A stretch of DNA of 44,077 nucleotides from Candidatus Omnitrophota bacterium (GTDB taxonomy: Bacteria > Omnitrophota > Gorgyraeia > 2-01-FULL-45-10): contig JAPLME010000006.1 in assembly GCA_026387175.1 (NCBI GenBank), forward strand, positions 1 to 44,077. The letters run 5' to 3'. Shown here in pieces: positions 1,471 through 13,519 of the stretch. Every line of letters begins with the position of its first letter. Position 1 is the stretch's first letter. The notes beneath the pieces are model-generated. The model did no database searches and was not told the origin of the DNA. It saw nothing but the letters and a program-made list of their open reading frames with translations. The position numbers and the translations under genes are program-made.

Positions 1471-2676
1471 TTACTTAAGCAGGACTCTTGCGAATTTCTT
1501 TCCGACTCGGATTTGGTATTCTTTACCTGATGCAAGAGTAATATTGATGTCGGTCACTTTGGCACCATCTAGCTCGACTGCGCCTTCCTGTATTTTACGC
1601 TTCGCCTCTCCCCTGCTGGCGAGGATCTTAACGCCATCGACCAGGACCGAAATAATAGTCGGTTTATCCCCTATCGAAATATCCTGCAAAGTTATATCCT
1701 GAGGAAAACCCTTATCTTTGAATGCCCTATCAAACTCTAATACCTGCAATGAGGCGGCTTCCGCGCCATGGTATTGGCCGACGATTATCTTTGCCAGATT
1801 TACCTTGGCATCCTTTGGATGGAGCTTGCCGTCTGTCACATCCTTTTTTATCTTAGCTGTATCCTCATCCGTCAAAAGCTCGTAATATTTGTACATGAGC
1901 TCATCCGAAACCGACATCAGCTTACCGAACATATCTTTCGGATTCTCGCTTATCCCGACATAGTTGCCGAGAGATTTGGACATCTTCTGGACGCCGTCTA
2001 GTCCTTCTAGTAGCGGCATCGTTATGACAACCTGAGGCGCCATCATATAAGCGCCCTGGACGTCACGGCCTACAAGAAGGTTGAATTTCTGATCATTCCC
2101 CCCCAGCTCGACATCTGCCTCAAGCGCTACTGAATCGTAACCCTGGAGGAGCGGGTAAAGAAATTCAAGCATCGTGATATTCTTCTGCTGTTTTATGCGG
2201 TTCGAGAAGTCATCGCGCTCAAGCATTCTCTGGACCGAATAACGGGACATCAGTTCGGCAGTTTTGGCAACATCCATCTTGCCGAGCCATTCACTATTAA
2301 ACCTGATCTGTAATTTATTTACGTCAAGAATCCTGGATACTTGATGTTCGTACGTCTTGGCGTTCTGGATCACCTCTTCCTTGGTGAGACGGGGCCTTGT
2401 CTTCGATTGTCCCGAGGGGTCACCTATCATGGCGGTATGGTCACCTATTAGGAATACTACTTTATGCCCAAGATCCTGGAAATGGCGCAGTTTCCTCAAT
2501 AATACAGTATGGCCGAGATGAATATCAGGAGCGGTGGGATCAAATCCCGCTTTTATAACGAGTGGTTTATTGGTTTTAATGGCACGCTCAAGTTTCTTCC
2601 TGAGCTCATCAGACTGGATGATCTCAACGGTGCCGCGCTTAATAAGGCCTAATTGTTTATCTATATCTTTTTCCAT
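1471..2676 (-). CDS. tyrS: Tyrosyl-tRNA synthetase
   Basis: Class I aminoacyl-tRNA synthetase that charges tRNA-Tyr, 401 residues from the ATG at 2676. The class I signatures are intact: HLGH at residues 53-56 within a [11 protein letters not shown] context and KMSKS at 231-235. Residues from about 335 to the end form an S4-type RNA-binding domain ([19 protein letters not shown] region) that contacts the tRNA. The upstream in-frame TTG at 2712 is rejected because it lies inside the -35 element of a strong promoter. That promoter puts the transcription start almost on the ATG, so the message is probably leaderless or nearly so; no Shine-Dalgarno site is visible. The downstream TPR gene follows after 10 bases. 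Confidence 0.97.
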
Positions 2677-2683
2677 AGCCTGT

Positions 2684-2712
2684 ATTTTACAGAGTGAAAA
2701 AGACAATGTCAA
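2684..2712 (-). promoter_or_regulatory. tyrS promoter (near-leaderless)
   Basis: TTGACA (2712-2707), 17-base spacer, TAAAAT (2689-2684) on the minus strand. Only seven bases separate the -10 from the ATG at 2676, so initiation should fall at about 2677-2676, at the start codon itself. The terminator T-run of the giant gene ends at 2721, eight bases before the -35. Confidence 0.8.
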
Positions 2713-2720
2713 CCTATATC

Positions 2721-2788
2721 AAAAAACCGAGCCACCGGAGCGGCAGAGCCGACGCTAGTAAGCTCTGCCGTAAATTCCGGCAGCTCGG
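2721..2788 (-). terminator. Strong intrinsic terminator after the giant gene
   Basis: On the minus strand CCGAGCTGCCGGA (2788-2776) pairs with TCCGGTGGCTCGG (2739-2727) over 13 positions, two of them G-U. After a small internal loop CGGCAGAGC pairs with GCTCTGCCG over nine more. A run of six T (2726-2721) follows directly. It lies 22 bases after the stop codon of the 3129-residue gene and isolates it from tyrS. Confidence 0.88.
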
Positions 2789-2810: not shown

Positions 2811-5800
2811 TTACAACGCCGTTAATACCGCGTCCTGCATCTCCTTCCATTCTTCTATCTCTTTAAAGTCTATAGGCTTAATCCTTAACGGGAATAAACC
2901 ATTAAGGATATTATTTACTATGTTCGGATCATTAACAAGGTCGATCGCTCCCGGATTAGAAACAAGCGACTTAATAAGATCCACGAGAAGCCTTTTAGAA
3001 TCCGGCGTCATGTCCTTACCATATCTGCCGTAATTAAGTAGACCTTTGCCTAGCACTATATGCATCACGTTGTCGATTATGCCGCTGTCCGGTATATTTT
3101 CTTCTCCGACGACCGATACTAAATCGGTTAGTTGCGGATATGTATTTTTTACAACCTCTTTAACAACTGCAACCCCTTCCCTCTCAGATGGGGCAAATAT
3201 TATGGCACGGGCGGTATTGTCACCGCGACCTATCCTATCCTGAAGCTCTGACATGGCCTTCGGCAAGACTTGCTTCTTCAAATTCTCCATCCAATCATCT
3301 CCGAATTTATAACTATATGGCACCGTATCCTGACCATAGTCTTTATGAAGTTTTCTCACAGTATCATGATTTACCGCTGTCTGCTTCGGCAGATAAATAT
3401 CGGAACCGGGCATTATAATGATATCCGCGGTACCTTTACTGATATCCGCTATGACCGCCTTCGCAGCCTCAATTTGCGGTTCAATGAGAGCTTTCAACGC
3501 GTCTGCCTTGCCGGATAGATCCCCCAGATAAGCCTCTCTGTCCGGCGACACGGAAGTCACAGGTGCTTCGACCTTGCCCACAATAGGCACGGAGTTGTTA
3601 TTGAAGATAGCGGTCCATAGAGTAAGCTGTGCATCTAACGTCGCTCTGAAGCCCTTTAATTTATCCGATATCATACCCATATTATTCTCTTTAATCGCAT
3701 CTTGTATACCCGGTCCCTCGCTTAACAACTCCTGTATTACCCGCTTTTCGGAATCTACCAACTCATAATTCGCCATAAGATAGGAAAGAACGTTAAAAGC
3801 CTCATCCCATCTGCTCCACGATTTAATAAGATTAGGGGCTCCCACTATATTATCTTTATCGCTTGCATCTATAGCGATAGTATATAATTCGGCGGCAAGC
3901 AGAAGGTCCTCGACAGCCATAAGGAGCGTTTCTTTGGATGGAGGCTTCAGCGATTGCAATATTTTGATCGAATCCATACCATCTGTAGGAATCGCATGTC
4001 CTCCTAGATTTGCCTCTTCCACCAACTGCACTTCGTCTTTAGGGGCACCGGAGAACATCTCTTCCGCGCTCAGGATCTTAACATCACATTTTTCAACGCT
4101 GCGCTTTCTGTCAACAAACCATCGGTCTGGGTCAGTAATAGTGATGGTTTCCATCGGCGGATTTTCATTAATACCTTCTACAACCACAATTACATCTATA
4201 TCTGTAGGCGACCTGCCTGGAGGAGCATAACACCAGCTTCCATATATGTATATTCCTTTGATTAGCGACTTATCTATCTCTTTATCTTTAACCATAAGTT
4301 TTTTGTTCGCTTTGAGATATTCAACAATCATATCTTTTATAATATCCTGGAACCCCTCTTTCAAGCCCCCTAGGACCTTATCATTAAATAACTTTTTGTC
4401 GTTCTCTGATAATTTGGGATAATACCAGTTCCGTTCGGCAAGCATATCCATGATCGCCGTGCGCTCGGTTTCCGACAAAGCGGCAGCAGGCGTAGTTACA
4501 ATGCCTGGAGGGGTAATCATAGCCGATCGCTGCAGCATGGGAGACTCAACAGCGCGAAATTCCTGAACCAGCTCTCTTATTACCCCTTCCGCCTTTGAAT
4601 AATCCACGCCTTCAAGAGCTAAGGATTTAACCATTTGCATTTTTCTTAGCTGTGCGTTTAATTTTGCCTGAAGCGCGACAACGTCTCCAGCGTATTTAGC
4701 CGCATAATAACCGACATAGAATTGATAGGCTGCTTTTTGATTCTCATCCACCATGTCTTTTATTGCATTTTCTAAGCCTGCGTTTTCGCTAATAAGCTTG
4801 GCCCCCTCCACTCTTACAGCTTCAAAATTGCCTGTATCTATGACCTTGCTTTTATAATCGACTTTATCAAAATCAGCAGATGCGGAATGGTATTTTTGTT
4901 CTACGATAATCGTGGGCAGATCCTCCTCTTTTAGAGTCAATGCCTTAATAAGAGCAGTGCAAGCTTCCATATCTATAATCCCTAATTCGTCAGAGACGCT
5001 AAGGTGGGCATCGGCAGAACTGAAGGTATCTGTAATTTTTTTAAGTATGCCTTTCCCTAATAAGTTAGCGGCATGAAGCTTGGTGGCGCGAACGGGAATA
5101 TTCAGATCTTCCAGCCCCCGGTAAAACTTTAGCAATTCTACAAAAGCATCATTTCCGCAGATCTCAAGATGGGAAAGATCGACTGTTGCATTAAGTAATA
5201 AATTTTCTTGTATCTCCGGTACGGTATAACCCTTGCTCTCCAAACGCTTTGAAGCTCCTTCGTATATATATTTTAAAGCCTCGACAAAATTCTTAGCGTC
5301 TAATGGGGATAAAGGCTGATTGCCATCATCAAATTTTTCTTCATCTGACAATTCATAATTTTCGATATTTGCGGCTATCCTGTTTTTACCGATTGCGGCG
5401 AGCTGTTTATTCTTTTCGGCTATCTGGACGACTGCGTCCACAACTTGATCTATGGAGCGGCCTTTCTTTTCTAATGCCTGAGTAGTTTGAGCAGCGCTGA
5501 CATGCAAAAGAAGATAACCTGCTTCGGGATTGAGCGCTTCGAGCACCATTAGTTCCCGAGCGACTGATTCCTTGTCTACTTTTCCCTGCTCTTGTAAGAC
5601 CCTGTGGTGAAGACCAACTTTAACACCAGCATTACGTAATGCTGCGCCAATAATCTCGAGCCTTTCCGGAGAATATTCGGAATTTAGATCAAATCGATTG
5701 GCCAAGAATGAAATTGGAGTGCCGGGCACGATCACTCCTGTATCTGAAACTAACTCTATACGTTCTACTCCTTTTTCCTTAATCAAATTAAGCACGGCGT

Positions 5801-8800
5801 CTTCCAGGGTCCAGCAGGTTCCCTCTGACTTTCTTTCCGGATCGACCTGGAAGAAGATGGATTCCCCTCCGTCCAATTTTCTGCCCCCTATTGCCTCGCG
5901 GAGTTCTTCCGCAAACCATCCGGGATTCTTTTGCCACTTACGTTCAGTTTCGGTTTTGGCTCTAGCATAATCCGCAGCAAGTTTCGGATCGGAACTCTTC
6001 TTTAAATATTCGATCTTGTCAAGATAACCCTTAGCTATTATAGGATCAGTTATCGTGGTTGTCGGCGCCGCTATAGCGGGCGCGGCTGGCGTAACGGCGG
6101 TTATATTTTCCGCTATAACATGGCCTTCGAAGGAACCTCCTACAAGTGCTTCAAGATAATATTTGGTTTCGTTATAATACCCGCCTATCTTGTCAAGGCT
6201 AAATTCATCTTCCCTGATATAGTCACCCACGCCGTCCTTACCGCGCTGAACCAGATTAAATTTGCTGTACCCGAAAGGACCTGCCAGGACTGTCTTCACA
6301 CCTATGTTCCGAGCATATCCTATGGTGTAATCTATAAGAGACTTCTTAATCTTCGCTTTTAAAGGTTCTATGATCGAGTAATCATCGCTTATTTCCATGT
6401 TATCTATAACCAGATAAGGCTTTTCGCTATCTTTAGCCAGAAAGAGCCATGCAAGCGCCATCGTCTTATTAGTGTCTTGGTCTATCACTTCCGCCACCTG
6501 AATGCCCTGGTCTATTAAGTGGTCTATCATGGCTTCGAAATGAGTGCGTGAATTAGTAGCCATACAGCAACCGGTAAAGTCTCCAAGGAATAGATCATGC
6601 GCCGGAGACCTATTCCACATCTTAATAGTGAAGTGCCTGCTCTTCTTGGCACGATCCATCACCTCTTCAGCGTCGGTGATGAGTTTCCTGAGTTCGAGAA
6701 GGGAGCTTCTGAGGTGCCCTATGGCTTCCTGTACCTCGACGTTGTCTTTCAGATTGCGCTCGAAAAACCCGATAGTTTTGGAATCAAGCAGCTTATCGAT
6801 ATTGACGGGATTTTTTTTGGAATCTTTTTCCGAAAATATCCTTATGAGCTCCAGACGTTTATTCCTAATAGGTGCAGTTTCCTTATTGGCAGGCACAAGA
6901 CGTATCTTGGCATTTTTATCATCTGATATCTTAAGCTGAAGATCGTTATCGATAAAATTGCGGAAGCTCTCTTTTTTACCGGATGGCAAGCAGTCGTATA
7001 GCTTTATTATAAGGTGTGCCGTACCCATAATGTAGCTTTCGGGATCTACCTCGAGATTGCGGTCCGAGAATGAGAAGCCCTCTTCGTAGGAATAGTTTAA
7101 CCATTTGTCTGGGTTTATTCCTGATTTTCTAATAGCTTCCCTTACTTTCTCGTTGTGGAGAGCCAGATCCTTGCCTTCCTCATTGTTATCAGTGATATCT
7201 GTAATAAATGTGTTAAATGTATCGTTAAACGTGGCTTTTAGAAGAGATTTGAAGAGCCTCGTCTTATCGAAGCTTCCAGTTTTTCGGTCAAGCTCAATAA
7301 TGAAATCCATGGCCACCTTCAGCCTCCCTATAAAGGGCATATAGAATTGCGCAAACACCTCCGGCTTCACGGATGAAGCATCGATATCAAGAGACTTCGC
7401 GAGATCTTTTATATATCTTTCGGCAAGCGTATTATATGTCCTCGAAAGGGGCGCCTTATTTTTTGCGGAGGCATTTAGTATTGAAATAAACGCATCTGTG
7501 TTCTTTAAGTCTATATACGCCATTGCTATCTCGAGTATCTTCTGGAAAGAGCCGGGGTCTTTCTTATCTGAAGACGAGTAGAGAGCTTCAAGCGCTTTTA
7601 TTGTGTTAGTATCATATAGTTTTACGGCCTCGAAAAACCTGTTGAGCCTGAATGGGTCTTTTACCCCCAAGAGACCCCTCAAGAATGCGAAAGCGTCTTT
7701 GCCCATGATGTCCGCAAGCATTACAACGGTAGCTGTGGATTCTTCCCAGAACTTCGCTTCATCTATCCTGCGGGACTCCTCTAAAGTCTTATTCTTCTCG
7801 GTAAAGAGGGCTTTAAGGTTATCGAATTCTTTGATAAGCGGCGTATTTTTTTCGGTTAATTTTAATAAGTCGAATTGTAACTTTAGATAGATGCTCACAA
7901 GATCATCGCCTGGATATTTATGGAGGGTTTCGGCATGGCTGTTTAAGAAGCCAGTAACCTGATTCGCGTATATAGGACTGATGCATGATACTGCAGCCCG
8001 GCGGCAATCATCAGGATTAGCAGGCGTCAGCATTGATTCGAGTATGCTAAAAATTCTACCCTCTTCCGCAGGATCAAGGTCGGGGCGCACAGCGATGAGG
8101 GATACTGCCGCTGCCATCTGAGAGGCCCACCCATCAGCCTCTCCCAACATAGACTCGAGCTCTCCCAAAGTTATCTTATTTTCTTTATAGATCTCAGGAT
8201 ATATTAGAATGAGAGATTCTGCCACTGTTCGAGAAACATCGGTATTGCGCAGCATGGATTTGAATATATCGAGAATTCTATTCTGGTCTACAGCATCAAG
8301 ATTGGGATATATGGTGCCTATAGATAGCCCTGCTATAAGGTTAGCAGTGAACCTATCGTGCTTCAGCATGTATTCAAATTTTTCGAGAACTCTCTTCTTC
8401 TCCATGGGATCGAGGTTAGGATATATGGCGCTGAGAGATTTTGCCGCTGCCTGTTGAATAACATAATTATTATTTTCCAGCATAGGCTCAAGATTTTCAA
8501 AGACCGTTTGCCGATCATTAGGATCATCAAGGTTGAGATATATAGCGCCAAGGGATATCACTGCCAAATTAACGATCCAGTTATTGCCGTCTTTAAGCAT
8601 GAGTATAATTTTTGATAAAGATATATCTTTGCTTTCTTTCCTTTTGTATAACACAGGATACGCAGCGCCAAGGGATTCCGACACCGCCTGCCTGACAATA
8701 GAAGTGTCGCTCCTAATCATAGATTCGAGTTTCTCAAGAATTCCTTGCTGGTCGTTAGACTCTAGGTCAGGACATATGGCGCCGAGAGATACTCCCGCCG

Positions 8801-11800
8801 CGAGGCGAGCAGCCCAGTTAGTTTCTGCCAGCATAAGCTTAAGCCTTTCAAGAGTCATCTCCCTTTTTCTGTAAAGTTCGGGATATATGGCGCCGAGTGC
8901 TTTTGCGGCAACCTGGCGGATATCGGAATCACTGTCTCTCAACATAAGTTCGAGTTTTTCGAGAGCTATCTTACCTTCCCTATAAAGCATGGGATATATG
9001 GCGCTCAGAGATTCCATCGCCACATTGCGGGCAGCCCAGCTATCAGCGTCTCTAAGCATGGATTCGAGCTTTGAGACACGAAGGATAGTATCTCTTAAAG
9101 CTTGCTTAGTTTCTAAGGTAACTGACGCAGAAACAGGTTCTTTGATCCCGCCCATAATAGATGCACTATTGCCGGGGAAGAGGAGAATCTTATCGCCGAC
9201 AATAACGTTATTTTCATTATAAGTTACGATTGAGACTACGCCTTCGGTGACAGTGACCTCGGTGCGATACGTGCCCGGCGCGTATGCCGTAGTGGTCCTC
9301 GCTGAGGACTCCACAAGAATAGCCCCGCCTCCTATTTTTGCGGTAACAGCTATGCTCTGTCCTTCGAACAGAGTGTGTGTATCGCCGACAATATCGCCTT
9401 TTTCGTTATAAAAAGCGTATGTAACCTTGCCTTCAATAACAGTGACCTCGGTCCGATATATTCCCGGCGGATAGTTTCTGGCAAGGGTTGGCTCATTTTT
9501 CCAAATAAATAACTCATTATTACCGGCAATATAAAAATCCGTTGGCAATGGAATATCAGTATTCAAGTATTTTTCACGAATAGGTATGAATTTCAGCTTT
9601 TTACCAGCCTTTTCGCTCGAACCTTCAATCTTATTGCGCAAACTGCCAAAAACCCCTGTCGGCTTAATTACAACTTCGGCGCCACGCTTAAGCTTCTTCA
9701 AAATGTTGGGGTCTCTTAATAATGTAAACAGATCCTCCACAGCCTCCGGTTGTGGATTGACCAGAAGAATATAGTCTATGGAATTATCCTGTAGTGAATT
9801 GAGTATTTCGGAACTAGCCCTAACAACTGATAGATTATCCAAGGGTTTATTCAGGGGATTGCCTAGTTCATCCAGCGGTAACTTTCCGCGCGCAAACATA
9901 TTTGCATAGTCCTTATATTTTGGAGCCCTGGACTTCGGATCATATATATCTGTAGCAATGATCCCCATATCTCCATTTTTCTTGGCTATAGCAGAGGCTG
10001 TTTTCCCGCTACCACATCCGATCTCCAATAATATTTTAGCTACCTTATTACCGCCTCTTAAATTGCCTTGTGAGATGCCAATAGCCTTTTCTATTTCAGC
10101 ATTATTCGATATACATTTTGGCATGTCTTTAGGCATATTTTCCCGCATATCTTTTTGCATATTTTCAAGATACGTTCTTAACGAAGGCAACGCTGTAGGC
10201 TGTGTAGTGTGTGGAGCTGACAGCGCTGGCGCAGTAGCTACCGGGGTTGTCAGCACAGGCAACTCGTTAATAATGCTGTTGACATCAATTCTTGGTAGGC
10301 CAGCTTCGGAAGAATTGACTACATTAAGCTCTCCATCTATAACCAACCTATTATCACCATTAAATACCACCACCAGGCCTTGATTACTTATATTCATTTC
10401 CAATATCTTAGCTTTCAACGCAATCATTATTCTAAGGTGCCGCTCAAAATCATCGCCTTCAACCTTTATGCCAAGTTCGTTAAGGATGCTTGCTATGGCA
10501 AGCGATGAATTGAACAGCGTTGCGAGACGCGGATCCATAATGTCTTGTTTACCTGATAATAATTTGAAGTAGGGGCTCTTATAGCCTTCATCGTTTTTGA
10601 AATTCGGGATTATCGATATATACGATATGCCTTCTTTTCTGAATATTTCGCAGAGATTGTCGGTGTGAAAGCCGCCTGTAACTAGAATGGAGGCCGTTTG
10701 CGGCGCTCGCCCATCGGCCGCAAACTTAAGATTCTTTACAAATGCGCTGTCACGTTTAAATGAATACTCATAGAACTTCGATATCTCTTCGCGGTAACGA
10801 TCGATATCGTTAATATTTCCATTGAGCGTTGCCGTTATCTTATACTTTGGAGCGTTCGCGTCGATGAAGCGCTCATAATTGGAGAGCCTGAAATCCCCTT
10901 CATTTGCCTCATAGTACCGGTAATCGTCTCTCGTTAAAGATATGTTGAATATATTTTTCATTATCGCGAAGTTCTTGGAAAGCCGGGCAAGGTCTCTCTG
11001 GGTTTCATTCTCGAAAAACGCATCCTTTATCTTTGTCTCTAAAATATCTATCTCGTCCATAACCTTCATCTTATCCATCGCGTCATACAGCGCTATGTAG
11101 ACTATGTACTTCGTAAACTCAGGCAAATCCTGCAGGTTAATGCCGGATTTCTTTGCCCTGTCCATAAGATAAGCGTAGAAATCTTTCTGAGAGATCCTCT
11201 CTGCCTTAAATTCAACCGTCTTTACGACAAGTTCCTCCATGGCGTTTTTTGACAGCTTCTTGTGCAGCATATCGATAAGCTGATCCCGCTCATTATTCGC
11301 CTTATTGAAATCTATTGCGGATTCTTCCTGCTGAGCTTGGTTCAGCAAAAATATGTTGTGGTAGGGTTTAATATCTATCGCTTTAGCTTTAGCCTCACTC
11401 AATAAATAGGCAAGGTATTCTTTAAATCCCAGATTATCCGCTTTATACTGGGAATATTTTGTATCGAATTCCAGGAGTTCTTTTGAATAAATCTTGATCT
11501 TAAGATTTGTCAGTATACAGCTGAGTGATTTTAAAAATACTTCGGCCTCATCCTTGTGTGCGAAGGAATTCCTGTAAACATTGAGATTATCTACGTAGAG
11601 CGCCGGATCTTCTATGCCCCAGAGAGTAACCTTCTCGGGATTATTCACCGCGAAGTATTCAGCGCCATTCACCAGGCCATCCTTCACAAAATAGTCAGAG
11701 GTCTTTTCCCTTACCTCCTTGTCTGCGATAGAGGTAAATACGGATAGATCATAGCCTTTGGCTCCACCCTCCAGGTTAATAGCGCGTATCCCATAATTAT

Positions 11801-12200
11801 CATTGATATACTTGATAATTTCAGCGATCTTTTTCTGGGCATTATAGTTGCAATGCGCGTCCTGAATCTGAATTACGATCGGGGAGGGATGTTCACGCCG
11901 AAAAGCGGACAAGGCGACGGTCCAGGCATCTTTTATCGTGCCAAGAGACTGTGGAAGAGCAAACGTCTTGGGATCCAGTTCCTTAATAATGCTTTGGCTA
12001 ATAAGTTCCGCAGACGCACTATCAGCCCAAGCTCGCCCTACGAAGCCCAAAGGGCGAAGTAGAGCTAAATCATAGAAGAACAAATTGACAAAAAAAGCCG
12101 TCAAGGTGATTAAGCAGGCGATCACCTTAAACGGCTTATTATGGAGCAACGTGCCCATGTAAGTATTAGATCTAGCGTCTATCATATCTAATGCTTTCAT
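2811..12200 (-). CDS. Giant multidomain exported or membrane-anchored protein (3129 residues)
   Basis: One uninterrupted frame. Residues 26-48 are strongly hydrophobic and are followed by AWA-D (57-60), so it is either exported with a long-headed signal peptide or anchored. Domains seen: about 60-600, an unassigned alpha/beta domain with DAHCN (114-118) and TGGFH (508-512); about 700-900, a Rossmann methyltransferase-like domain with EIGCGSGK (726-733); about 907-1017, two copies of a repeat starting PGxYRTEVTV; about 1035-1410, roughly ten HEAT-like repeats; a helical stretch to 1840; 1840-2020, a GNAT-like fold with GDFTGCC (Cys 1878-1879); 2087-2440, a xylose-isomerase-like TIM barrel (motifs LHHRVL, NIENY, DLSHLEICG); 2570-2860, a polymerase-beta-type nucleotidyltransferase with GS (2654-2655) and DID (2667-2669); and an unassigned C-terminal domain 2880-3129. 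Ala/Pro/Thr-rich linkers separate several domains. It has its own promoter and terminator. Function unknown; giant ORFs are typical of Omnitrophota. An internal start at codon 6 or 15 is possible. Confidence 0.85.
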   Translation of the reverse strand: MKALDMIDARSNTYMGTLLHNKPFKVIACLITLTAFFVNLFFYDLALLRPLGFVGRAWADSASAELISQSIIKELDPKTFALPQSLGTIKDAWTVALSAFRREHPSPIVIQIQDAHCNYNAQKKIAEIIKYINDNYGIRAINLEGGAKGYDLSVFTSIADKEVREKTSDYFVKDGLVNGAEYFAVNNPEKVTLWGIEDPALYVDNLNVYRNSFAHKDEAEVFLKSLSCILTNLKIKIYSKELLEFDTKYSQYKADNLGFKEYLAYLLSEAKAKAIDIKPYHNIFLLNQAQQEESAIDFNKANNERDQLIDMLHKKLSKNAMEELVVKTVEFKAERISQKDFYAYLMDRAKKSGINLQDLPEFTKYIVYIALYDAMDKMKVMDEIDILETKIKDAFFENETQRDLARLSKNFAIMKNIFNISLTRDDYRYYEANEGDFRLSNYERFIDANAPKYKITATLNGNINDIDRYREEISKFYEYSFKRDSAFVKNLKFAADGRAPQTASILVTGGFHTDNLCEIFRKEGISYISIIPNFKNDEGYKSPYFKLLSGKQDIMDPRLATLFNSSLAIASILNELGIKVEGDDFERHLRIMIALKAKILEMNISNQGLVVVFNGDNRLVIDGELNVVNSSEAGLPRIDVNSIINELPVLTTPVATAPALSAPHTTQPTALPSLRTYLENMQKDMRENMPKDMPKCISNNAEIEKAIGISQGNLRGGNKVAKILLEIGCGSGKTASAIAKKNGDMGIIATDIYDPKSRAPKYKDYANMFARGKLPLDELGNPLNKPLDNLSVVRASSEILNSLQDNSIDYILLVNPQPEAVEDLFTLLRDPNILKKLKRGAEVVIKPTGVFGSLRNKIEGSSEKAGKKLKFIPIREKYLNTDIPLPTDFYIAGNNELFIWKNEPTLARNYPPGIYRTEVTVIEGKVTYAFYNEKGDIVGDTHTLFEGQSIAVTAKIGGGAILVESSARTTTAYAPGTYRTEVTVTEGVVSIVTYNENNVIVGDKILLFPGNSASIMGGIKEPVSASVTLETKQALRDTILRVSKLESMLRDADSWAARNVAMESLSAIYPMLYREGKIALEKLELMLRDSDSDIRQVAAKALGAIYPELYRKREMTLERLKLMLAETNWAARLAAGVSLGAICPDLESNDQQGILEKLESMIRSDTSIVRQAVSESLGAAYPVLYKRKESKDISLSKIILMLKDGNNWIVNLAVISLGAIYLNLDDPNDRQTVFENLEPMLENNNYVIQQAAAKSLSAIYPNLDPMEKKRVLEKFEYMLKHDRFTANLIAGLSIGTIYPNLDAVDQNRILDIFKSMLRNTDVSRTVAESLILIYPEIYKENKITLGELESMLGEADGWASQMAAAVSLIAVRPDLDPAEEGRIFSILESMLTPANPDDCRRAAVSCISPIYANQVTGFLNSHAETLHKYPGDDLVSIYLKLQFDLLKLTEKNTPLIKEFDNLKALFTEKNKTLEESRRIDEAKFWEESTATVVMLADIMGKDAFAFLRGLLGVKDPFRLNRFFEAVKLYDTNTIKALEALYSSSDKKDPGSFQKILEIAMAYIDLKNTDAFISILNASAKNKAPLSRTYNTLAERYIKDLAKSLDIDASSVKPEVFAQFYMPFIGRLKVAMDFIIELDRKTGSFDKTRLFKSLLKATFNDTFNTFITDITDNNEEGKDLALHNEKVREAIRKSGINPDKWLNYSYEEGFSFSDRNLEVDPESYIMGTAHLIIKLYDCLPSGKKESFRNFIDNDLQLKISDDKNAKIRLVPANKETAPIRNKRLELIRIFSEKDSKKNPVNIDKLLDSKTIGFFERNLKDNVEVQEAIGHLRSSLLELRKLITDAEEVMDRAKKSRHFTIKMWNRSPAHDLFLGDFTGCCMATNSRTHFEAMIDHLIDQGIQVAEVIDQDTNKTMALAWLFLAKDSEKPYLVIDNMEISDDYSIIEPLKAKIKKSLIDYTIGYARNIGVKTVLAGPFGYSKFNLVQRGKDGVGDYIREDEFSLDKIGGYYNETKYYLEALVGGSFEGHVIAENITAVTPAAPAIAAPTTTITDPIIAKGYLDKIEYLKKSSDPKLAADYARAKTETERKWQKNPGWFAEELREAIGGRKLDGGESIFFQVDPERKSEGTCWTLEDAVLNLIKEKGVERIELVSDTGVIVPGTPISFLANRFDLNSEYSPERLEIIGAALRNAGVKVGLHHRVLQEQGKVDKESVARELMVLEALNPEAGYLLLHVSAAQTTQALEKKGRSIDQVVDAVVQIAEKNKQLAAIGKNRIAANIENYELSDEEKFDDGNQPLSPLDAKNFVEALKYIYEGASKRLESKGYTVPEIQENLLLNATVDLSHLEICGNDAFVELLKFYRGLEDLNIPVRATKLHAANLLGKGILKKITDTFSSADAHLSVSDELGIIDMEACTALIKALTLKEEDLPTIIVEQKYHSASADFDKVDYKSKVIDTGNFEAVRVEGAKLISENAGLENAIKDMVDENQKAAYQFYVGYYAAKYAGDVVALQAKLNAQLRKMQMVKSLALEGVDYSKAEGVIRELVQEFRAVESPMLQRSAMITPPGIVTTPAAALSETERTAIMDMLAERNWYYPKLSENDKKLFNDKVLGGLKEGFQDIIKDMIVEYLKANKKLMVKDKEIDKSLIKGIYIYGSWCYAPPGRSPTDIDVIVVVEGINENPPMETITITDPDRWFVDRKRSVEKCDVKILSAEEMFSGAPKDEVQLVEEANLGGHAIPTDGMDSIKILQSLKPPSKETLLMAVEDLLLAAELYTIAIDASDKDNIVGAPNLIKSWSRWDEAFNVLSYLMANYELVDSEKRVIQELLSEGPGIQDAIKENNMGMISDKLKGFRATLDAQLTLWTAIFNNNSVPIVGKVEAPVTSVSPDREAYLGDLSGKADALKALIEPQIEAAKAVIADISKGTADIIIMPGSDIYLPKQTAVNHDTVRKLHKDYGQDTVPYSYKFGDDWMENLKKQVLPKAMSELQDRIGRGDNTARAIIFAPSEREGVAVVKEVVKNTYPQLTDLVSVVGEENIPDSGIIDNVMHIVLGKGLLNYGRYGKDMTPDSKRLLVDLIKSLVSNPGAIDLVNDPNIVNNILNGLFPLRIKPIDFKEIEEWKEMQDAVLTAL

Positions 12201-12313: not shown

Positions 12314-13519
12314 TTACTTCTTGAGAACTTTTCTGAATTCTTTGGTGAGAGCGGGAACTATTTCGAAGATATCGCCGACTATGCCATACGTGGCGACTTT
12401 AAATATCGGCGCATCGGGATCTTTATTGATGGCTACTATCACTTTCGCGGATTGCATTCCTATCAAATGCTGGATCTGGCCGCTTATACCACACGCTATG
12501 TATAATTTAGGACATACGGTCTTCCCTGTCTGGCCAACCTGATGCGAATACGGCATCCAGCCGGCATCTACAGCAGCCCTCGAAGATCCTACCGCGCCGC
12601 CAAGCACTTTGGCGAGCTCCTTGACCATCAAAAAGTTCTCAGGGGAACCCAGCCCGCGTCCGCCTGATACTATTATATCGGCCTCAGCCAGATTGATCGT
12701 ATCCTCTATTTCTTCAACTATGTCTAAGAGCGAAGTCCTCGAAGTTAAGATGTCTCCTGAATATTTCTTCCTGATGACTTCGGCTTTATGGCTTTTGTGT
12801 ATTTCAGCCTCCTTCATTACTTTGTGACGGACAGTGGCCATCTGCGGCCTGTGGTTCGGGGTTATGATGGTGGCCATGATGTTGCCGCCAAACGCTGGGC
12901 GGGTCTGTAAGAGGAGTCTCTCCTTATCGTCTATATCAAGTCCTGTGCAATCTGCCGTAAGGCCAGCGTCTATCTTTATCGCGACCCTCGAGATAAGGCT
13001 TCTGCCTATCACTGTAGCTCCGCAGAGAATTATCTCCGGCTTAAATTCCTCAGCCAGACTGACTATTACTTTAGTATAAGGGTCATCCTGATAATTCTTA
13101 AGCACCGGATCATCGACAATATAGATCTTATCGATGCCTCTGGCGCTAAGCTCTCCTATCTTAGATTCAATATCGTCACCGAGAATAACAGCGCACAGCT
13201 TTACGCCGAGTTTCCTGGCAAGCTTCTTGCCTTCGCCCAACAATTCAAAAGATATCGTCTGTATAACGCCCTTTTTCTGCTCGCAGAAGACCCAGACGTC
13301 TTTATAGCTCTTCAGGTCTTTCGTCGCCGGCGCAGTGTCTTTCTTAAGCTCTATCGCACTGAACTTGCAGGCGGTCACGCACGCGCCGCATAACGTGCAT
13401 TTGGCCATATCGATAACGGCCTTCTTATTGGCCATCGATATCGCGCCAAACGGGCAGGTCCTCACGCAGAGTGTACACCCGGTGCATTTAGGCAATATTA
13501 TCTGGATAGAGGCAGGCAT
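12314..13519 (-). CDS. etfA: Electron-transfer flavoprotein alpha subunit with N-terminal 2x[4Fe-4S] ferredoxin domain
   Basis: 401 residues, longer than a plain EtfA (about 310-330) because residues 1-60 form a two-cluster ferredoxin: Cys 12, 15, 18, 22 and Cys 41, 44, 47, 51. An ETF alpha/beta domain follows, and the C-terminal FAD-binding domain (GGRGLGSPENF, then SRAAVDAGWMPYSHQVGQTG and the GISGQIQHLIGM segment). Ferredoxin-fused EtfA is known from electron-bifurcating complexes such as the caffeyl-CoA reductase CarCDE of Acetobacterium and lactate dehydrogenase/Etf complexes. The order here, acyl-CoA dehydrogenase, etfB, etfA, matches carC-carD-carE. The protein therefore probably passes electrons between EtfB/NADH, the dehydrogenase and ferredoxin in the cytoplasm. 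It begins one base after the etfB stop. Confidence 0.95.
   Translation of the reverse strand: MPASIQIILPKCTGCTLCVRTCPFGAISMANKKAVIDMAKCTLCGACVTACKFSAIELKKDTAPATKDLKSYKDVWVFCEQKKGVIQTISFELLGEGKKLARKLGVKLCAVILGDDIESKIGELSARGIDKIYIVDDPVLKNYQDDPYTKVIVSLAEEFKPEIILCGATVIGRSLISRVAIKIDAGLTADCTGLDIDDKERLLLQTRPAFGGNIMATIITPNHRPQMATVRHKVMKEAEIHKSHKAEVIRKKYSGDILTSRTSLLDIVEEIEDTINLAEADIIVSGGRGLGSPENFLMVKELAKVLGGAVGSSRAAVDAGWMPYSHQVGQTGKTVCPKLYIACGISGQIQHLIGMQSAKVIVAINKDPDAPIFKVATYGIVGDIFEIVPALTKEFRKVLKK

What the first reader, a model, noticed from the sequence alone, without database searches (positions are those of the whole stretch)
2811..12200. Single-gene 3129-residue protein joining seven or more unrelated domains
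The frame is open throughout, with its own promoter and a strong terminator, so it is a unit rather than a misassembled run of genes. The order (signal/anchor, unassigned domain, methyltransferase, repeat pair, HEAT array, GNAT-like, TIM barrel, nucleotidyltransferase, unassigned C-terminus) is unlike any architecture I know. Exporting predicted SAM-, acyl-CoA- and NTP-dependent domains is odd, because those cofactors are cytoplasmic; either the N-terminus only anchors it with the body inside, or it is delivered into another cell.
Basis: partly seen in the sequence, partly recalled or inferred. Interest (0 to 1): 0.8.

Follow-up and report, generated by a model that had tools for sequence, protein, structure and literature searches.

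The report
Exported giant protein with swappable cargo
The 3129-residue protein is one of about two dozen large, apparently exported proteins in this Omnitrophota bacterium that keep matching start and end pieces but swap their middles completely between close relatives, and whose middles often look like working enzymes of the cell interior, which suggests a modular cargo-export system not described in the papers searched.

Summary
The reading frame is real, single and uninterrupted (minus strand, 2811-12200). The 'unlike any architecture' impression has an explanation. The protein has a signal peptide and a conserved ~480-residue head (TIKI/erythromycin-esterase/ChaN superfamily by motif; AlphaFold2 pLDDT 90.5). 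It ends in a conserved ~240-residue tail with a C-terminal signature. An exchangeable cargo lies between head and tail.

At the orthologous locus (ETF genes upstream, tyrS downstream, 80-95% identical) other genomes, including the same genus, carry the same head with unrelated cargo of other lengths; one is head plus tail with almost no cargo. The window's TIM-like and nucleotidyltransferase-like modules have zero and one match respectively elsewhere in 197 genomes of the class.

A C-terminal profile trained on other genomes retrieves, in this genome, 11 proteins as its top hits, all with a signal peptide. They belong to a class of ~22 proteins (7.9% of the genome) with matched N/C ends (p=5e-5), cysteine depletion typical of exported proteins (p=3e-7), and cargo resembling phosphofructokinase, phosphoglucomutase, UDP-glucose pyrophosphorylase, PPDK, malic enzyme, MalQ and SecA.

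Best reading: a cargo-exporting megaprotein that works like MARTX toxins (constant ends, swappable effectors) without being one. Export is well supported. Delivery into another cell is inferred and uncertain.

The parts
2811..12200 (-). single open reading frame, 3129 codons, signal peptide - head - cargo - tail
   Evidence: likely true start at 12185 (residue 6)
12024..12185 (-). Sec-type signal peptide, residues 6-59 (K-rich start, hydrophobic core, ...GRAWA|DS)
   Evidence: sequence; same feature in family members
10521..11966 (-). head domain (residues 79-560), TIKI/EreA/ChaN superfamily; D114-x-H116, E144, R483, GGFH512 invariant in 72/72 homologues
10161..10283 (-). Pro/Ala/Thr-rich linker, residues 640-680, end of the conserved part
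9486..10058 (-). cargo: SAM-methyltransferase-like module (residues 715-905), motif LLEIGCGSG intact
   Evidence: Pfam Methyltransf_4 E=1.3e-4, below cut-off
9111..9485 (-). cargo: pair of ~55-residue beta repeats (GTYRTEVTV...), shared with G001:C4 and own 8961-aa ORF
7761..9083 (-). cargo: HEAT-repeat array (residues 1040-1480)
   Evidence: Pfam HEAT_2 2.3e-10, HEAT 4.7e-9; alphaRep PDB hits
6681..7760 (-). cargo: unassigned region (residues 1481-1840)
   Evidence: no family or PDB match
6024..6113 (-). Pro/Ala/Thr-rich linker, residues 2030-2059
4581..6023 (-). cargo: orphan module (residues 2060-2540), TIM-barrel-like by eye only; no other match in 197 genomes of the class
3591..4523 (-). 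cargo: nucleotidyltransferase-like module (GSWCY..TDID, residues 2560-2870); one homologue, at another position in another family protein
2814..3533 (-). tail domain (residues 2890-3129), alpha/beta, conserved at the extreme C-terminus of head proteins
2814..2909 (-). C-terminal signature (last 32 residues, ...LRIKPIDFKEIEEWKEMQDAVLTAL)
2726..2788 (-). strong terminator palindrome; contains element core GCTTACTAGCGTCGG
12164..12192 (-). 29-bp DNA block with inverted repeat ATTAGAT/ATCTAAT around the likely start codon, kept in five other genomes
1471..2712 (-). downstream flank: tyrosyl-tRNA synthetase, marks the orthologous locus
12314..13519 (-). upstream flank: ETF alpha/ferredoxin gene, marks the orthologous locus

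Best explanation
The protein is a modular exported cargo carrier. Its signal peptide sends it through the Sec translocon. A TIKI-superfamily head (probably a hydrolase or protease) and a C-terminal tail form the constant carrier, and the ~2300 residues between them are exchangeable cargo joined by flexible linkers. The terminal ~30 residues act as a second, C-terminal sorting signal shared by a class of about two dozen large exported proteins in this genome. The cargo enzymes keep catalytic motifs and use ATP, SAM or sugar phosphates, so they most likely work in a nucleotide-containing space outside the producer, such as a host or prey cell or a vacuole. Replacement of cargo at a fixed locus is how the repertoire diversifies. 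Shown here: constant ends, unrelated cargo at the same locus, class-wide C-terminal signature, matched N/C ends, cysteine depletion, catalytic motifs in several cargo enzymes of the class. Inferred: sorting role of the tail, hydrolase activity of the head, place of action.
For: Orthologous locus: ETF genes upstream and/or tyrS downstream (80-95% identical) flank the same head (49-65%) in G001, G002, G003, G021 and G025. Cargo is unrelated and open frames run 1017 to >4400 aa; the 1017-aa form is head plus tail with almost no cargo. Tail: found by HMM in 40-odd complete head proteins, always ending at the C-terminus. A C-terminal profile trained on other genomes ranks 11 signal-peptide proteins first among 1352 ORFs; 0 expected. 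The terminal pattern occurs in 20/47 signal-peptide proteins >=700 aa versus 2/45 without one (p=1.5e-5) and 4/258 small ones (p). Sub-families share both ends but not the middle, permutation p=5e-5. Cys 0.58% versus 1.19% in cytosolic proteins, p=3e-7, equal to other exported proteins. Cargo Pfam hits: PFK, PGM/PMM, UDPGP, PPDK, malic enzyme, starch synthase, MalQ, SecA, HATPase, CheR, ABC1 kinase and others. Catalytic motifs present in PGM, SecA, UDPGP, radical SAM and PFK. TIKI motif D/E-x-H, Glu 28 residues on, Arg, His invariant in 72 heads.
Against: No secretion machinery for the C-terminal signature was identified; the one probe (SprA, type IX) was uninformative because its controls also failed. 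No translocation domain is known in the cargo. Foldseek found no confident structure match for head or tail; EreA-family entries appear among the top head hits but at E 0.16-0.9. The C-terminal pattern was not significant in other genomes' loci when compared with large proteins lacking a signal peptide (8/21 vs 2/9), only versus small signal-peptide proteins (p=1.6e-5). Signal peptides were called by a simple rule, not by SignalP. No expression data.
Confidence: 0.62

Rival explanations
1. A surface-displayed structural or adhesive giant: cargo modules are former enzymes recruited as bulk, spacers or decoys, as proposed for other Omnitrophota giant proteins.
For: Published giants of the phylum are read as surface coats or adhesins (PMC10066038). 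Rapid cargo turnover fits a surface under attack. HEAT arrays and beta repeats suit binding.
Against: Catalytic motifs are kept in PGM (TASHN, DxDxDR, EES, RSSGTEP), PFK (GGDD, IDND, MGR), SecA (RTGGGKT, DEAD), UDPGP and radical SAM. No adhesion domains in the window protein; no RTX or LPXTG motifs in the class.
Confidence: 0.17
2. Targeting to an internal membrane compartment, or anchoring with the body in the cytoplasm: the N-terminal segment and tail address the enzymes to an organelle-like space that supplies ATP and SAM.
For: Cargo classes need cytoplasmic cofactors. PVC-group bacteria can have internal compartments (general knowledge).
Against: AxA cleavage sites and positive-inside starts of ordinary Sec type. 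Cysteine depletion equal to exported proteins and unlike cytosolic ones. No internal transmembrane segments in most members.
Confidence: 0.14
3. A more specific version of the best explanation: a true toxin/effector array delivered into a host or prey cell, with the TIKI head as translocating or processing protease.
For: TIKI domains occur in MARTX and related effectors (PMC6254334). Constant ends with swappable middles at one locus. Host-dependent traits in the phylum (PMC10066038).
Against: No translocation or autoprocessing domain was found. No ATP/ADP translocase hit in close relatives, though the control also failed. The head also exists alone as ~500-560-aa proteins in many families.
Confidence: 0.3
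4. Assembly or frameshift artefact fusing several genes.
For: Metagenome-type genomes; cargo differs between relatives.
Against: The head occurs in 143 of 285 genomes of the phylum and the plan recurs in many independent assemblies; conserved ends at both sides of one frame.
Confidence: 0.01

Closest known systems
MARTX toxins (Vibrio and others)
   Same: One giant secreted polypeptide; constant ends with a central array of effector domains that varies between strains; a TIKI-superfamily domain occurs among MARTX effectors (PMC6254334, PMC5555677, PMC6315884).
   Different: No RTX repeats and no cysteine-protease domain found; Sec signal peptide instead of type I secretion; TIKI domain at the N-terminus; cargo elsewhere in the class resembles metabolic enzymes.
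TIKI / erythromycin esterase / ChaN superfamily
   Same: D/E-x-H, Glu 28 residues later, conserved Arg, second His after a later strand.
   Different: First acidic residue is Asp rather than Glu; a large helical insertion; fused to cargo and tail.
Giant ORFs of Omnitrophota (Velamenicoccus and others)
   Same: Same phylum, very long, probably exported proteins (PMC10066038).
   Different: Those are described as coat or adhesion proteins from ORFs >20 kb, poorly conserved; no head/tail carrier with swappable enzyme cargo is described in the passages read.
Chlamydia export of housekeeping glycogen enzymes (e.g. phosphoglucomutase CT295, type III secretion)
   Same: PVC-group bacteria exporting sugar-phosphate enzymes into a space outside the cell (PMC9251005).
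   Different: Chlamydia exports single small enzymes by type III secretion; here enzymes are cargo inside giant Sec-signal proteins.

Membership tests
TIKI/EreA/ChaN superfamily (head domain) | 2His/2Glu(Asp) catalytic set with conserved Arg on a parallel beta core | tested here: met
   D114, H116, E144, R483, H512 invariant in 72/72 heads; H->E spacing 28 as in Bcr135 and RRSP. R->H spacing varies in the family and is not used.
TIKI/EreA/ChaN superfamily (head domain) | significant profile or structure match | tested here: inconclusive
   ChaN Pfam model E 0.0055-0.065 in a few members; Foldseek EreA-type hits E 0.16-0.9
TIKI/EreA/ChaN superfamily (head domain) | hydrolase activity | not testable with these tools
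   needs purified protein
MARTX toxin | glycine-rich RTX-type repeats | tested here: not met
   0 GGxGxD motifs in the window protein and class
MARTX toxin | internal cysteine protease (Peptidase_C80) | tested here: not met
   no Pfam match up to E=1 in the window protein
MARTX toxin | constant ends, strain-variable central cargo at one locus | tested here: met
Type IX secretion substrates | genome encodes SprA-type translocon | tested here: inconclusive
   no hit, but control genomes also silent
Gram-positive sortase substrates | C-terminal LPxTG motif | tested here: not met

The most novel reading that the evidence does not exclude
Omnitrophota possess a bipartite export route, an N-terminal Sec signal followed by a [TK]LAP-type motif or TIKI head plus a C-terminal ~30-residue signature, dedicated to shipping catalytically active cytosol-type enzymes as cargo of megaproteins, with cargo replaced at fixed loci; in effect an exported metabolism.
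Probability: 0.35. Interest if true: 0.92.

Novelty: new variant of a known kind. Interest (0 to 1): 0.78.

Why it matters
Giant proteins of Omnitrophota are known but unexplained. This work gives one large group of them a grammar: two constant ends, a swappable middle, and a C-terminal signature that can be searched for. It makes testable the question of what these often host-dependent, ultra-small bacteria send outside their cells, and whether they export ordinary metabolic enzymes as Chlamydia does for glycogen. The head and tail also provide a marker to find such cargo across the phylum.

Tried and rejected
Same domain order elsewhere: none found; the cargo modules tested are private or nearly private to this genome. 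Modules as recent copies of the genome's own housekeeping genes: rejected, cytosolic paralogues are only 23-28% identical. PDB and Foldseek identification of head, tail, GNAT- and TIM-like regions: no confident match. Arg-to-His spacing of 29 as evidence for TIKI: rejected, the linker length varies in the family (alignment; a different residue at that spacing). ATP/ADP translocase and SprA searches: uninformative, controls failed. Start-codon hairpin: conserved, but folding z-scores only -1.2 to -1.7. G015's 8095-aa neighbour excluded because 16 kb of that stretch is masked. GC and GC3 along the ORF show no clear foreign segment.

Full report
1. What is there. The ORF is on the minus strand, 12200->2811, 3129 codons, uninterrupted, in a 99.87% complete 1.82-Mb genome of 12 contigs. 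Named relatives of the head are all Candidatus Omnitrophota. The terminator is a strong palindrome. The promoter scan is at chance level, and its best -10 near the gene start overlaps the first ATG; a conserved DNA block points to residue 6 as the start.

2. The head. Residues ~79-560 match four places in this genome and 43 of 57 relatives, and 143 of 285 genomes sampled across the phylum. In some families the head occurs alone as ~500-560-residue open frames, perhaps the older form. AlphaFold2 gives an alpha/beta domain with a large helical insertion, pLDDT 90.5. D114-x-H116, E144, R483 and GGFH512 are invariant in 72 of 72 aligned heads. H116 to E144 is 28 residues, as between His-85/Glu-113 of Bcr135 and His-3902/Glu-3930 of RRSP. 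With weak ChaN matches and weak EreA-type Foldseek hits, I place the head in the TIKI superfamily by motif. Enzyme activity is not shown.

3. The tail. The last ~240 residues recur at the extreme C-terminus of 40-odd head proteins. AlphaFold2: alpha/beta, pLDDT 85.5; no confident PDB match.

4. The cargo. Between head and tail almost nothing matches any relative. The TIM-like module has no other match in 197 class genomes. The nucleotidyltransferase-like module has one, at another position of another family protein. At the orthologous locus, ETF genes upstream and tyrS downstream are 80-95% identical (tyrS in G002 80.7%, ETF/acyl-CoA genes in G001 89-95%). The head is still 49-65% identical, but the cargo is unrelated and open frames run 1017, 1788, 3129, >=3570, 4393 and >=4419 aa. 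The 1017-residue version is head plus tail with almost no cargo. Constant carrier and replaceable cargo is therefore observed directly.

5. A class. A profile of the last 32 residues, trained only on head proteins of other genomes, was scored on 1352 ORFs of this genome. The top 11 all carry a signal peptide and include proteins with quite different N-termini; none is expected from internal windows. Signal-peptide proteins >=700 aa carry the terminal pattern in 20 of 47 cases, versus 2 of 45 large proteins without a signal peptide and 4 of 258 small ones (Fisher p 1.5e-5 and 7e-15). Many have a [TK]LAP motif after the signal peptide. Sub-families share both ends while middles differ: 7 of 12 N-similar pairs are also C-similar, 0.66 expected, p=5e-5. 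In other genomes' loci the pattern is enriched against small signal-peptide proteins (p=1.6e-5) but not significantly against the few large proteins without a signal peptide.

6. What the class carries. Pfam finds phosphofructokinase, phosphoglucomutase, UDP-glucose pyrophosphorylase, PPDK, malic enzyme, starch synthase, 4-alpha-glucanotransferase, SecA-like ATPase, glucoamylase, radical SAM, HD, HATPase, CheR, macro and ARMT1 domains, and in relatives ABC1 kinase, M48 peptidase, PPDK, GGDEF and a cyclic-nucleotide-binding domain. Motifs are intact in the PGM, SecA, UDPGP, radical-SAM and PFK modules. Separate cytosolic paralogues exist at 23-28% identity. Cysteine content is 0.58% against 1.19% for cytosolic proteins (p=3e-7) and equals other exported proteins, so the bodies look adapted to life outside the cytoplasm. 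The 22 proteins use 7.9% of the genome.

7. Reading. The simplest account is an exported carrier with exchangeable enzyme cargo and a C-terminal sorting signal. It works like MARTX toxins in having constant ends and a swappable centre but fails their defining features (no RTX repeats, no C80 protease). Export of metabolic enzymes by a PVC bacterium has a precedent in Chlamydia (PMC9251005). Where the cargo acts is inferred: ATP-, SAM- and sugar-phosphate-dependent enzymes need a supply, so another cell or a vacuole is likelier than open water, but no delivery device was found.

8. Limits. Signal peptides were called by a simple hydrophobicity rule. Structure prediction was limited to head and tail. 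No literature found describes this family, but bioRxiv and most subscription papers were not searchable.

Noticed in passing
window 2749-2763 (-); L045:5534, L046:1476 and 14475, L048:13066, L059:2059, L067:6121: A palindromic element (core GCTTACTAGCGTCGG) sits in the terminator just after this gene, but in more than ten relatives lies inside the gene, encoding the peptide after the signal-peptide cleavage site (AWA..PSELTSVGSDRA); L046 has it at both ends. Resembles in-frame palindromic elements of Rickettsia.
   Followed up: partly
window 12164-12192 (-): 29-bp DNA block with inverted repeat ATTAGAT/ATCTAAT around the likely start codon, conserved in five other genomes even at synonymous sites.
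   Followed up: partly
own genome C12:113013-174579 (L038-L041): Cluster of class genes: 11305, 3737, 707, 1290 and 3323 aa in a row; a 195-aa module is 80% identical between the 11305- and 3737-aa proteins.
   Followed up: partly
own genome C10:52751-118339: 21862-aa open frame, on a contig with a 72-kb masked stretch; its end also fits the terminal pattern loosely.
   Followed up: no
L079:541-7806 and L149:34-4572: Head ORF and the next in-frame ORF are separated by one stop codon (TAA, TAG); in L079 the second ORF carries the tail. Decay, sequencing error or readthrough not resolved.
   Followed up: no
G233, G238, G239, G259: Some genomes of the phylum give 60-78 first-look candidates for the head, suggesting very large expansions.
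   Followed up: no
own genome C11:2-26884: 8961-aa frame with tandem repeats near its start, cut by the contig end; near its C-terminus it carries the same GTYRTEVTV repeat as the window protein.
   Followed up: no
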